DNA of 10,265 bases from an uncultured Caldimicrobium sp. (lineage in GTDB: Bacteria > Desulfobacterota > Thermodesulfobacteria > Thermodesulfobacteriales > Thermodesulfobacteriaceae): contig CALLJI010000193.1 of NCBI GenBank assembly GCA_938091475.1, forward strand, positions 1 through 10,265, written 5' to 3'. Of this stretch, positions 5,922-8,521 are shown in pieces (positions within the stretch are counted from its first letter, which is position 1; the number at the start of each line of letters is the position of its first letter). Below the pieces are notes generated by a model. The model saw only the letters and a program-made list of their open reading frames with translations. It did no database searches and had not been told where the DNA came from. Both the position numbers and the translations under genes were made by a program.

Positions 5922-6768
5922 TGCGGTATATAAAGCCCTGCTTGAATTAGGGCATAGGGTAGAGCTCTTTGATCCTTCCTGTGATCTTCTTAAATTAGCG
6001 CAAAGAGCCCAAGAATTTGATTGTGCATTTTTGGTGGTGCATGGTCCTATGGGAGAGGATGGCACCTTGCAAGGATTTTTGGATATGCTTGGTTTACCCT
6101 ATCAGGGCTCTAAAGTATTAGGAAGCGCTCTTGCTATGCATAAGGGAATTGCTAAAATTTTATACAAAAGAGCAGGACTCCCTGTTCCAGAGGGCATTCT
6201 CCTAAATAAAAAAGTCTCTCAAGAAGAAATCACAGAAAAAGCCAAAGCTCTTGGTTTTCCACTTATCATTAAACCAGCTACTCAGGGCTCAAGCGTAGGT
6301 CTCTCTTTAATCAGAGAAAAAAAGGACCTAAAGGAGGCTGTAGAGAGAGCCTTTTCAGTAGACAATGAGATATTGTTAGAGGAATACATCCAAGGAAGAG
6401 AAATAACTGTCGGAATTCTAGAGGATAAACCTTTGCCAGTGGTAGAAATTTTGCCAAAGGGAAACCTTTTTGATTATGATACAAAGTATACACCTGGTAT
6501 GGCAGAAGAGATCTGTCCTGCCAGTCTGCCAGAAGATTTAACTATTAAGGCCCAAAATTATGCCCTTTATGCCCACAGAGCACTTTATTTAAGACATTAT
6601 AGCCGAACAGATATGATGGTAAAGGAAAGTGAAATTTATGTACTCGAAACTAATACCATTCCAGGAATGACTGAAACTAGTTTATTTCCTCTTGCAGCCA
6701 GAGTAGCTGGCTATAGCTTTAAGGATTTAGTACAAAAGCTTTTGGAATTAGCTTTGTCACAGCCTTAG
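5839..6768 (+). CDS. ddl: D-alanine--D-alanine ligase
   Basis: ATP-grasp ligase joining two D-alanines for the peptidoglycan stem peptide; cytoplasmic. At 309 residues it is full length. Motifs are ALLAGGTSSEREVSLKGA (10-27), VVHGPMGEDGTLQG (66-79), IIKPATQGSSVGLS (143-156), the flexible-loop YDTKYTPG (213-220), and the metal and substrate region SRTD (255-258) with LETNTIPGMTETSLFP (269-284). Asp258, Glu270 and Asn272 fit the Mg-binding positions. The usual MDK in the central domain is MHK here (100-102). The start at 5839 is supported by AAGGAGG at 5826-5832. It ends 4 bases inside the opposing gene, and it stands apart from any mur cluster. Confidence 0.97.
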   Translation: MSLKNVLRVALLAGGTSSEREVSLKGANAVYKALLELGHRVELFDPSCDLLKLAQRAQEFDCAFLVVHGPMGEDGTLQGFLDMLGLPYQGSKVLGSALAMHKGIAKILYKRAGLPVPEGILLNKKVSQEEITEKAKALGFPLIIKPATQGSSVGLSLIREKKDLKEAVERAFSVDNEILLEEYIQGREITVGILEDKPLPVVEILPKGNLFDYDTKYTPGMAEEICPASLPEDLTIKAQNYALYAHRALYLRHYSRTDMMVKESEIYVLETNTIPGMTETSLFPLAARVAGYSFKDLVQKLLELALSQP

Positions 6769-7157
6769 CTTTGATAATAGCCTTGCCTTATTTTTTCTGC
6801 TTCAATTCCAATGTAAAAGGCGGATTCTTTAAATAGATTTTTAATCGCACCCTCAGGCAAGGTCTCTGCTATTTTTTCCATCTCCATAGCTTGGGTAAGA
6901 AGGAAATCCCCCACGGTGGAAGCTGTGGATTCACTAACGGGTGTCTTAGCCATTCGCTCTAATAAGTCTAAGGTAAATTCAAGCTTATCCGAGAGTACTT
7001 TAATTTTGGCCTTTTCTGTATCTTTAAGAATTTCTGCACTCTCAAGCTCACGGAGAGCACTTTTGAGATAATCTTCAAAGATTCTATTTCCCTGTTTAGC
7101 AATAGCCTCTTTGGTTATAAAGTAACTGTTTTCAATACTTTTAGTCTCTATTTTCAT
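6765..7157 (-). CDS. Unrecognised small helical protein
   Basis: I do not recognise this 130-residue protein. It starts MKIETKSIENSYFITKEAI and is probably all-helical and soluble, with alternating charged and hydrophobic residues, many Glu and Lys, and no signal peptide, membrane segment or cysteine. The ATG at 7157 is preferred over an upstream start at 7241: AGGAGG lies 7 bases before it (7165-7170), and the upstream extension would run through the promoter into the first palindrome of the repeat array. A good promoter (-35 at 7209-7214, -10 at 7186-7191) fits this start. Its stop overlaps the stop of ddl by 4 bases. It is transcribed alone, against both neighbours. Confidence 0.75.
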   Translation of the reverse strand: MKIETKSIENSYFITKEAIAKQGNRIFEDYLKSALRELESAEILKDTEKAKIKVLSDKLEFTLDLLERMAKTPVSESTASTVGDFLLTQAMEMEKIAETLPEGAIKNLFKESAFYIGIEAEKIRQGYYQS

Positions 7158-7185
7158 AAAGAGGCCTCCTTTAAACCTTTTAAAT

Positions 7186-7214
7186 ATTTTAATCATTTTA
7201 TCGGCAAAAGTAAA
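7186..7214 (-). promoter_or_regulatory. Promoter of the 6765-7157 gene
   Basis: On the minus strand TTTACT (7209-7214) and TAAAAT (7186-7191) are separated by exactly 17 bases. This would start transcription near 7179, giving a leader of about 20 bases that holds the AGGAGG ribosome binding site. The first palindrome of the repeat array (7232-7249) ends about 17 bases upstream of the -35 box. Confidence 0.5.
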
Positions 7215-7230
7215 GATTTGGTTAAGAGGA

Positions 7231-7488
7231 AGGCGATTCACGAATCGCCCCCCAAAAAATGTAGGGGCACGGCACCGCCGTGCCCAAGGGGTTTATAAAA
7301 CCGCATTTGGGCAGCCGCAAGGGCTGCCCCTACATTTTTGGAATTTCTGAGCAATTCTTGAATTGCCCCTACTTTTCTAATCCTTTGGGCTCAGCATGCT
7401 GAGCCCCTACATTTTTATTCTTTTGAGGCAAATCGTGATTTGCCCCTACCAAGATTTTAATTTCGGGTACAGCATGCTGTGCCCCTAC
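7231..7488. repeat. Compound palindrome cassette, copy 1 (A-B-C-D-E-F-G)
   Basis: The hairpin order is A, B, C, D, E, F, G. Copy 2 at 7557-7843 has A, B, I, C, E, F, J, G. The six shared types keep both order and orientation. Part of the spacer between A and B is also alike: CCCAAAAAATGTAGGGG here against CCCAAAATTTGTATGGG in copy 2. Type D is found only here. Confidence 0.7.
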
Positions 7489-7556
7489 ATTTTTTCAAAT
7501 TCAAAAATATTAAAAAAGTAGGGGCACGACATGTCGTGCCCTAAAGGTTTTAAAGG

Positions 7557-7843
7557 GTAGGGGCGATTCACGAATCGCCCCAAAATTTGTATGGGCACGG
7601 CACATCCGTGCCCAAATTGGTTTTATATGTAGGGGCAGGGCTTGCCCCTGCCCTTTAATTGCGGGCAGCCGCAAGGGCTGCCCCTACTATTTTTTGAATT
7701 TTTGGGCTCAGCATGCTGAGCCCCTACGGAATTTTTCAATTTTTTGGGGCAAATCGTGATTTGCCCCTACAAGGCACTTCTCGCAGGCTAAAGCCTGCGG
7801 CTACCATTTGTTAATCTATTGGGCACAGCATGCTGTGCCCTAC
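7557..7843. repeat. Compound palindrome cassette, copy 2 (A-B-I-C-E-F-J-G)
   Basis: This is the second copy of the six-type series, separated from copy 1 by a single plus-oriented hairpin, H (7518-7541). Types I and J are extra relative to copy 1, and D is missing. Unit J (7782-7799) is an outlier: its flank reads GTAGCCGC on the minus strand and its stem is CGCAGGCT/AGCCTGCG. Confidence 0.7.
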
Positions 7844-7860
7844 AATTTTAAATCAATTAC

Positions 7861-7901
7861 AGCTACCTCTACTTGAAGAGGAGCTCTTAGTATGTTATTT
7901 T
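7861..7901 (+). promoter_or_regulatory. Possible promoter and hairpin before the lipoprotein operon
   Basis: TTGAAG (7873-7878) and TATTTT (7896-7901) are 17 bases apart, a moderate match to a sigma-70 promoter. The -35 box falls in a hairpin whose arms AGCT-A-CCTCT (7861-7870) and AGAGGAGCT (7877-7885) pair with one bulged base. No T run follows the hairpin, so it is not an obvious terminator. It is not of the GTAGGGGC type. Confidence 0.3.
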
Positions 7902-7921
7902 AATGTAAGGGGATCTCCTGA

Positions 7922-8521
7922 GTGGTTAAATATTTGTGTAAAAGATCAGTCTCTCTAAAATCCTTAACTTCAATTTTTTTAGCTTTTTTCTTATTTTCTT
8001 GTGCACCGAAGGAAAAAATTATAACCACTCTGACGGATTTTAAAGAAAAGCTTTCGGAAAGGGTAAAGGCAAAGCTTTCTCAAGTGCCTTTGGTTAGTAG
8101 GTGGGTAAAACTTCCCCCACCACCAAAGGAGCTTTATCAAAGGGTAGAGGAAAAGATTTCTCTTTTAAAGCTCTCCAAAGCTAAGGATTTATATAAAGAG
8201 GAATATGATAAAGTCCTTAAGCTTTGGGAGGAGGCTAAGGAAAATTATAAACAAAAATATTATCGGAGTGCGGAAAAGAAATTAAAAACAGTGCTAAGCG
8301 AGGCAGAGAAATTACTTGTAAAGGTAGAGGAGTATGAGAAAAACTTAAGGGCGAGGACCTTATTAAGATATAAAACTCTTGAAGATAAGTATTACAGTCA
8401 AAATTTCAAAGGGGAAGAAGAGAAAATTAAAGCCAGATTATATCTTTTTAAACTTAAAAATTTAATTGAGCTTGGATATTTTGATGAATTTGAAAAAGAA
8501 GCTGAAAACCCCCCTTTCTAA
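7922..8521 (+). CDS. Putative lipoprotein with long charged helices
   Basis: A 199-residue protein. Residues 1-26 form a lipoprotein signal peptide: a basic start (MVKYLCKRSVSLK), a hydrophobic core, and the lipobox LFSC with Cys27 as the lipidation site, followed by APKEK. The mature part is Lys/Glu-rich and probably helical, with a proline patch PPPPKE (66-71). Residues about 85-135 alternate Ala, Tyr and charged residues in a way that resembles tetratricopeptide or DUF4398-like helical lipoproteins; this likeness is weak. The GTG start at 7922 follows AAGGGGATC (7907-7914). It overlaps pgpA, so the two are probably co-transcribed. The function is unknown. Confidence 0.75.
   Translation: MVKYLCKRSVSLKSLTSIFLAFFLFSCAPKEKIITTLTDFKEKLSERVKAKLSQVPLVSRWVKLPPPPKELYQRVEEKISLLKLSKAKDLYKEEYDKVLKLWEEAKENYKQKYYRSAEKKLKTVLSEAEKLLVKVEEYEKNLRARTLLRYKTLEDKYYSQNFKGEEEKIKARLYLFKLKNLIELGYFDEFEKEAENPPF

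What the first reader, a model, noticed from the sequence alone, without database searches (positions are those of the whole stretch)
7231..7843. Dense mixed array of sixteen palindromes in one intergenic region
About 610 bases hold sixteen hairpins of ten stem types, fourteen of them with a GTAGGGGC (or near) flank on one side and GCCC on the other. REP/BIME loci usually contain one or two sequence types in alternating orientation. Here many distinct stems sharing one flank are gathered together. This suggests a family in which the flank, not the stem sequence, is what is recognised, or a locus that captures such elements.
Basis: partly seen in the sequence, partly recalled or inferred. Interest (0 to 1): 0.8.

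Follow-up and report, generated by a model that had tools for sequence, protein, structure and literature searches.

The report
Ordered mosaic of many REP hairpins
One spacer between two genes of a heat-loving bacterium holds sixteen small DNA hairpins of ten kinds, and the same kinds recur across its genome in a preferred order and direction, an unusually dense form of a known mobile repeat that probably spreads with the help of a transposase.

Summary
In detail: 16 hairpins of 10 stem types lie at 7232-7843. They are GTAG-tagged REP elements: GTAG, a 9-bp stem (near-constant GGGC base, four variable pairs), and mostly one of two loop classes. They are not a random collection. In 92 contigs (520 kb, 41% of the assembly; probably Caldimicrobium) I found 752 units in 94 clusters. 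All common types but AATT keep one orientation relative to their array, and types tend to follow a cyclic order, ACGA+ GATT+ AGGG+ ACGG+ | AGCC- AATT- TCAG- AAAT- GCAGGC- ACAG- |; contigs fetched later confirmed both. Identical neighbours are almost absent. Arrays occupy many of the larger intergenic gaps, divergent ones included. The ordered pair TCAG-AAAT occurs 18 times here and in none of 296 other genomes of the phylum; a simpler AGGG+/AACC- dimer does occur elsewhere. One RAYT gene was found, with three REPs inside its reading frame. Best explanation: a BIME-like composite with many stem types, copied in multi-unit blocks, probably mobilised by a RAYT that reads tag, stem base and loop rather than the stem middle. 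GTAG REPs, RAYTs and in-gene REPs are known; the ordered, polar array of ten stems is a new variant. Main gaps: one 72% complete MAG, no biochemistry.

The parts
7232..7843 (.). whole array of 16 REP-like hairpins, about two rounds of the cyclic order
   Evidence: order score of the window alone 26.6 bits against shuffles -19.5 +/- 8.2, max 5.8 (orientation-keeping shuffles max 10.1)
7232..7251 (+). unit 1, core GATT, degenerate tag
   Evidence: (repeat D4)
7261..7285 (+). unit 2, core ACGG
7309..7333 (-). unit 3, core AGCC, loop CTTGC
7349..7372 (-). unit 4, core AATT, one stem mismatch
7387..7410 (-). unit 5, core TCAG
7426..7449 (-). unit 6, core AAAT, one stem mismatch
7465..7488 (-). unit 7, core ACAG, one stem mismatch
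7518..7541 (+). unit 8, core ACGA
7557..7580 (+). unit 9, core GATT
7589..7613 (+). unit 10, core ACGG, tag GTAT
7629..7653 (+). unit 11, core AGGG, loop CTTGC
7663..7687 (-). unit 12, core AGCC, loop CTTGC
7704..7727 (-). unit 13, core TCAG
7747..7770 (-). unit 14, core AAAT
7780..7804 (-). unit 15, GTAGCCGCAGGC type (called CGCA in the scripts)
   Evidence: read; type found
7821..7843 (-). unit 16, core ACAG, one base missing next to the tag
6765..7160 (-). flanking gene of unknown family (no Pfam match for the longer ORF 6765-7241, no NCBIfam match); start at the ATG near 7160 is inferred
7922..8521 (+). flanking gene, no family match; its order with pgpA and cinA is kept in nine of nine relatives' loci looked at

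Best explanation
The array is a composite REP element (BIME-like) of the GTAG super-family, one of roughly two hundred in this genome if the sampled 41% is typical. Each unit is a guide tag GTAG, a hairpin of about 9 bp whose bottom four pairs (GGGC) are nearly constant while four middle pairs vary, and usually one of two loop classes. SHOWN: all common types but AATT keep one orientation relative to the array; types tend to follow a cyclic order; near-identical blocks of several units recur at different places; arrays occupy many of the larger intergenic gaps; long matches to the array were found in no relative searched; one RAYT gene with the expected motifs lies among such units and carries three of them inside its reading frame. 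INFERRED: these REPs with their group-4-type RAYT entered or expanded in this lineage after it split from its genus. The RAYT cuts and joins single-stranded DNA at units using tag, stem base and loop, so hairpins with different stem middles are all substrates. Multi-unit blocks are copied (by RAYT or by recombination between arrays), which spreads the order. Copies that bring two identical stems side by side in one direction are soon deleted by slippage, which leaves arrays in which neighbours differ.
For: Units: 752 in 94 clusters in 520,087 bases of 92 contigs. Polarity: 351 of 369 (first 61 contigs) and 245 of 257 (31 later contigs) agree with the type, AATT not counted; because the array direction is set by majority, random orientation would give 236.6 and 163.8 (max 262 and 184 of 1000). 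Order: adjacency information 1.49 bits, shuffles 0.57 (max 0.67), orientation-keeping 0.72 (max 0.83); later contigs scored with the earlier ones +227 bits, shuffles -321 +/- 35 and -223 +/- 33. Minus block forward 171, backward 30; plus block 159 and 80. Shared blocks: 64 of at least 70 bp and 92% identity, up to eight or nine units. Same-type neighbours 2 of 658, shuffles 49.8, minimum 33. One RAYT with three units in frame and motifs HIH and REYIINNP. Ordered pair TCAG-AAAT in 1 of 297 genomes, the own one.
Against: No binding or mobility shown. MAG 72% complete, so further RAYTs may be missing. The RAYT scores below NCBIfam's REP-RAYT cut-off (61.5 vs 80 bits) and only just over Pfam's (28.9 vs 23 bits with its neighbours in the frame). 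Order is loose in the plus block, and AATT occurs in both orientations (45 and 40). In other genomes the in-gene REP shares its stem with a flanking REP in only 16 of 37 loci that have both, so tag-and-loop reading is not the only way to see stem variety. Stem mismatches are common and paired double changes rare, so many units may be dead copies. The longest shared block joins two contigs (C3, C73) where the array lies near a contig end and may be one place assembled twice. The deficit of identical neighbours partly follows from the order itself.
Confidence: 0.7

Rival explanations
1. Several REP families, each served by its own RAYT (in the missing 28% or since lost), inserted beside each other; arrays are accumulation sites.
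For: Six of the cores seen here (AATT, ACGG, GATT, AGGG, AACC, ACCC) also stand near or in RAYT genes of other phyla, often alone. Di Nocera et al. state that species with several GTAG families have repeat-specific REPtrons (PMC3733652, section 16).
Against: Only one RAYT found by two searches. Independent insertion would not give shared polarity and order, unless it happened once and the result was then copied.
Confidence: 0.17
2. The arrays are kept for a function, such as two-way transcription terminators or insulators between genes, or supercoil sinks, and selection keeps order and stem variety.
For: Nine terminator-like sites in 6900-8100 against 2.0 +/- 1.7 expected; A-tracts 5' of the tag, so T-runs on the other strand, in 283 of 651 units; arrays in 20 of 30 divergent gene pairs.
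Against: In six of the nine sites CTAC lies between stem and T-run, and one of the nine lies outside the array. Per kb of free intergenic DNA the classes are similar, so there is no clear preference for divergent gaps. Copies decay without compensation. No long match to the array in the relatives searched.
Confidence: 0.08
3. Assembly artefact: repeats misjoined in a short-read MAG.
For: Fragmented MAG of 233 contigs; one long block shared near two contig ends; 31 of 86 arrays of three or more units had no ORF of at least 90 aa on one side before the contig end.
Against: Units are not enriched within 150 bp of contig ends: 13 of 184 against 14.6. Misjoining should not create one order and polarity on contigs fetched later. 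Stated contamination 0.54%.
Confidence: 0.04

Closest known systems
GTAG-tagged REPs (Di Nocera et al. 2013, PMC3733652; abstract, sections 5, 15, 16 and passages seen)
   Same: Unpaired GTAG at one end of a short G+C-rich hairpin with a small loop, high copy number, mostly intergenic, clusters of variable make-up.
   Different: [quoted passage not shown] Here 483 of 658 neighbour pairs are head-to-tail and 20 of 30 divergent gaps hold an array.
BIMEs and ordered REPIN clusters (PMC2817692, PMC3116915; passages seen)
   Same: REPs in clusters with regular spacing; ordered tandem clusters exist in Pseudomonas fluorescens.
   Different: [quoted passage not shown] Here ten stems, orientation bound to type, identical neighbours almost absent.
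TnpA-REP subclass 2.4, corresponding to RAYT group 4 (Quentin et al. 2018, PMC6006769; section 13 and passages seen)
   Same: RAYT with in-frame REPs between HUH and Tyr motifs (59 of 80 related loci have a GTAG-type hairpin in the matched gene stretch), and REPs with a foot of G-C pairs.
   Different: One RAYT found for at least ten stems, and 386 head-to-tail unit pairs in 1.26 Mb against 0-12 in 42 genomes that hold related RAYTs.
Inverted AGGG+/AACC- REP dimer with CTTGC-type loops
   Same: The AGGG+/AGCC- pair of the array resembles dimers in three other genomes of the phylum, one of the same family, and one inside the RAYT gene of a WOR-3 bacterium (L143).
   Different: There I saw the pair alone, not the ten-stem array.

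Membership tests
GTAG REP super-family | GTAG at the foot of a short hairpin | tested here: met
   tag positions G 701, T 708, A 716, G 685 of 752 units
GTAG REP super-family | high copy number, mostly between genes | tested here: met
   752 units in 520 kb; of 86 arrays of three or more units one lies inside an ORF, the RAYT
BIME / REPIN | REPs of the same type in alternating, inverted orientation | tested here: not met
   all common types but AATT keep one orientation; 175 of 658 neighbour pairs are inverted, and these are almost always of different types
RAYT (REP-associated tyrosine transposase) | Y1 HUH domain with HUH and Tyr motifs and NP near the Tyr | tested here: met
   HIH and REYIINNP in the alignment; PF01797 28.9 bits with its neighbours in the frame against cut-off 23; NCBIfam RAYT model 61.5 bits, below its cut-off of 80
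TnpA-REP subclass 2.4 / RAYT group 4 | in-frame REPs between HUH and Tyr motifs | tested here: met
   three units between the HUH and Tyr motifs of the own gene; 59 of 80 relatives with a hairpin in the matched stretch, nearly all starting 7-56 codons after HUH; all 80 loci hold the non-REP search peptide DEFVIMPN, so they were not drawn in by the REP-encoded peptide
TnpA-REP subclass 2.4 / RAYT group 4 | place in the family tree | not tested
   no tree was built
RAYT-REP pair (REPtron) | enzyme cuts its REPs | not testable with these tools
   needs biochemistry
intrinsic terminators | G+C-rich hairpin directly followed by a T-run | tested here: inconclusive
   9 sites against 2.0 expected, but CTAC lies between stem and T-run in six of them

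The most novel reading that the evidence does not exclude
A composite REP element of a kind I did not see in the papers read: about ten different hairpins in cyclic order and fixed polarity, identical neighbours excluded, spread over much of the free intergenic space of one thermophile by a single RAYT that ignores the stem middle and reads tag, stem base and loop. Stem diversity would then be a property of the element itself: it keeps dense arrays stable by avoiding long direct and inverted repeats.
Probability: 0.35. Interest if true: 0.68.

Novelty: new variant of a known kind. Interest (0 to 1): 0.52.

Why it matters
How a group 4 RAYT recognises its REPs, and whether one RAYT can serve many stems, is open as far as I read. 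This genome is a natural experiment: one enzyme found, ten or more stems, near-constant tag, base and loop. The arrays also suggest that REP clusters can be copied as long mixed blocks, not only as single REPs or REPINs, and that they can fill gaps between divergent genes.

Tried and rejected
Giant palindrome: in the window the two halves look like mirror images, but over all arrays family-level mirroring holds only for the innermost minus/plus pair (53 of 72; null mean 0.36, max 0.53); the second pair is at chance (16 of 44), and the plus/minus junction shows none (34 of 103 at the first pair).

Preference for divergent promoters: 20 of 30 divergent pairs hold an array against 34 of 334 others (ORFs of at least 90 aa), but per kb of free intergenic DNA the classes lie within about twofold of each other at all three ORF limits, so room explains most of it.

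Compensatory evolution within a type: 35 of 5,884 pair cells, 26 of them AGGG to TGGG, the latter partly because both forms were search patterns. Arrays as assembly break points: not enriched. Rfam: no match in the window at gathering thresholds. Plasmids: no match. Exact 24-base TCAG unit in viral contigs: none. A frame through an array as protein query: 3 proteins, all listed without a source, as own proteins are; gene callers rarely call such frames, so this is weak. Higher identity of hairpins than spacers (88% vs 75%) is biased by where alignments seed and is not used. Ends of copied blocks were not analysed: the shared tag makes them uninformative. No structure was predicted and no tree built.

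Literature: open-licence PMC only. 'GTAGGGGC' held in 440 papers; the 20 listed look unrelated; the other 420 were not seen. I do not claim the arrangement is unpublished. PMC12306157 lists Caldimicrobium thiodismutans in a table of predicted REPs (passage).

Full report
WHAT IS THERE. Between a minus-strand gene (6765 to about 7160) and a plus-strand gene (7922-8521) lie sixteen hairpins in 612 bases. The ten types, named by the four bases after GGGC, are GATT, ACGG, AGCC, AATT, TCAG, AAAT, ACAG, ACGA, AGGG and a separate GTAGCCGCAGGC type (CGCA in scripts). The assembly is an unnamed MAG of 1.26 Mb, 233 contigs, 72% complete. The named proteins nearest to its CinA are from Caldimicrobium MAGs (73% identity and less), so it is probably a Caldimicrobium.

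HOW COMMON. The exact pattern GTAGGGGC-N(4-30)-GCCC gives 448 + 552 hits in this genome, some units counted twice, against 1 + 0 for the reversed control. Six same-genus genomes have 0 to 19 hits. I fetched 91 further contigs. They cover C1-C88 without gaps, plus C217 (holds the RAYT) and C226 and C231 (hits of the array search). With the window that is 92 contigs and 520,087 bases, holding 752 units (at most five mismatches to a type) in 94 clusters, 86 of them of three or more units; 57 of 92 contigs have a unit. Extrapolated, about 1,800 units. Clusters span 28,397 bases, 5.5% of the sample.

ANATOMY OF A UNIT. Of 360 units found by tag, 286 have exactly GTAGGGGC, and at least 321 have either a loop beginning with A between C and G (C-A..-G) or the loop CTTGC/CTTGT. 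Four middle pairs vary. Types form groups that differ by one or two base pairs: ACGG/ACGA/ACAG/TCAG, GATT/GGTT/AATT/AAAT, AGCC/AACC/ACCC, AGGG/TGGG (my grouping). Within a type, of 5,884 pair cells in 672 units 365 are broken on one side, 152 are wobble, 12 changed on both sides without pairing, and 35 changed on both sides with pairing, 26 of these AGGG to TGGG. So types are discrete and copies decay.

POLARITY AND ORDER. I saw the order by eye in the window, the RAYT locus and the first listed places, then tested it. Orientation agrees with type in 351 of 369 units (first 61 contigs) and 245 of 257 (31 later contigs), in arrays of four or more units and without AATT, which occurs both ways (45 and 40). 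The array direction is set by majority, so random orientation would give 236.6 and 163.8, at most 262 and 184 in 1,000 draws. Adjacency information is 1.49 bits against 0.57 in shuffles (max 0.67) and 0.72 (max 0.83) when orientation is kept. The 31 later contigs, scored with transition counts of the earlier ones (window left out), give +227 bits against -321 +/- 35 (max -205) and, orientation kept, -223 +/- 33 (max -113) in 1,000 shuffles. Three of these contigs (C61, C226, C231) had been seen as hits and so were not blind. In the minus block the order AGCC, AATT, TCAG, AAAT, CGCA, ACAG runs forward 171 times and backward 30; in the plus block (ACGA, GATT-like, AGGG, ACGG) 159 and 80, a looser order; shuffles give 50%, at most 59%. 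Spacers have typical lengths: plus/plus 8 or 13-15, plus/minus 5-6 or 21-23, minus/minus 8 or 14-16, minus/plus 28-33, with outliers; spacers of one transition look alike. Sixty-four blocks of at least 70 bp and 92% identity are shared within or between arrays; the longest (358 bp, eight units) joins C3 and C73 near a contig end of each and may be one place assembled twice; the next (323 bp, nine units) is a repeat within C61.

NEIGHBOURS DIFFER. Same type next to same type: 2 of 658 pairs; orientation-keeping shuffles give 49.8 (33-65). At distance two there is no deficit (34 against 34.0). The order itself explains part of this. I read the rest as loss of direct repeats by slippage, an inference.

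WHERE ARRAYS SIT. With ORFs of at least 90 aa, arrays of three or more units lie in 20 of 30 divergent, 9 of 37 convergent and 25 of 297 co-directional gene pairs. Per kb of remaining intergenic DNA this is 2.76, 3.19 and 2.18 (70 aa: 3.11, 4.42, 2.5; 120 aa: 2.7, 2.43, 1.61). Of gaps with 150-400 bases left, 30 of 46 hold an array (36 of 47 at 70 aa, 21 of 41 at 120 aa). So arrays have taken a large part of the room there is, including divergent gaps. These are simple ORF calls, and 31 of 86 arrays could not be placed because no ORF followed on one side.

THE TRANSPOSASE. One Y1 transposase gene was found with Pfam PF01797 and with its own protein: L029 119-832, 237 aa, with HIH and REYIINNP. 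It lies upstream of rpmH-rnpA (names from my reading), with two units before it (read) and an array of twelve after it. Its frame contains ACCC+, AATT+ and AGGG-. It scores 61.5 bits against the NCBIfam RAYT model, below its cut-off of 80. In six same-genus loci no RAYT and no GTAGGGG lies in the about 1.3 kb before rpmH. One same-genus genome, G003, has another Y1 hit, not followed. In 80 named loci with related RAYTs from many phyla (the best 80 of 274), 59 have a GTAG-type hairpin in the matched stretch, 1.87 per kb against 0.09 per kb farther away; where flanking hairpins exist too, the stem is the same in 16 of 37. All 80 hold the search peptide DEFVIMPN, so the REP-encoded peptide did not select them. 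In-gene REPs are a published mark of subclass 2.4 (PMC6006769), which corresponds to RAYT group 4 there; I place the enzyme there by this mark, not by a tree.

SPECIFICITY OF THE COMPOSITE. BLAST of the array in 99 genomes (at most five candidates scored in each): 12 have a match. G000 has long ones; the other 11 have short ones of at most 68 bases, many to the GTAGCCGC unit alone. In G078, G057 and G024 they span an inverted dimer like AGGG+/AGCC-, with AACC-like or other second stems. So this dimer is older than the composite, perhaps its seed. The ordered pair TCAG-AAAT: 18 hits here, none in 296 other genomes of the phylum. Two units head to tail with any stem: 386 here; 0-12 in each of 42 genomes reached through 44 of the 80 RAYT loci, chosen by hand from those with hairpins; the 12 are in a 5.7 Mb genome. 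Behind the array, the plus-strand gene with pgpA and cinA is kept in nine of nine relatives' loci, while the genes to the left of the array are not found in the 3-4 kb before it there.

MECHANISM. Most likely an acquired or newly expanded REPtron whose enzyme reads tag, stem base and loop. Two group 3 enzymes need GTAG bases and particular loop bases for cleavage and tolerate many paired stem changes, though mismatches harm (PMC8266576, sections 17 and 20, and 23 in part, read). I saw no such data for group 4. Order arises because blocks, not single units, were copied; whether RAYT or recombination copies them cannot be told here.

LIMITS. One incomplete MAG; no binding, expression or population data; other phyla were searched for arrays only through the 42 RAYT genomes; literature only in open-licence PMC.

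Noticed in passing
L119-L198, RAYT gene in each: 59 of 80 related RAYT loci from many phyla carry a GTAG-type hairpin in the matched gene stretch, nearly all starting 7-56 codons after the HUH motif; the stem equals that of a flanking hairpin in 16 of 37 loci with both. Known for subclass 2.4, but the variety of stems per enzyme is worth a survey.
   Followed up: partly
L230, L242 (G078), L237 (G057), L239 (G024): Inverted dimers AGGG+/AACC-like with CTTGC-type loops occur in other genomes of the phylum, one in the same family; a possible seed of the composite.
   Followed up: partly
window 7780-7804: The GTAGCCGCAGGC hairpin also occurs in several distant genomes of the phylum (G046, G051, G056, G057, G088, G094, G097) without the other types in the match.
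   Followed up: no
G032 (same order; locus L074): 22 Y1_Tnp matches in one genome; many come in two halves with an insert between them, reminiscent of RAYTs with internal inserts.
   Followed up: no
L069 (G003, same genus): A Y1 transposase match in a same-genus genome that has no GTAGGGGC...GCCC pattern hit.
   Followed up: no
protein P0003: A 70% identical RAYT relative of 348 aa that continues past the usual end into a REP-like peptide (RAIHELPL) and an unrelated stretch.
   Followed up: no
L044 6266-6493: Arrays give open frames that could be annotated as spurious proteins, with peptides such as VGTQHAVP.
   Followed up: no
window 6900-8100: Six of nine terminator-like hits are units read on the strand where CTAC and a T-run follow the stem.
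   Followed up: no
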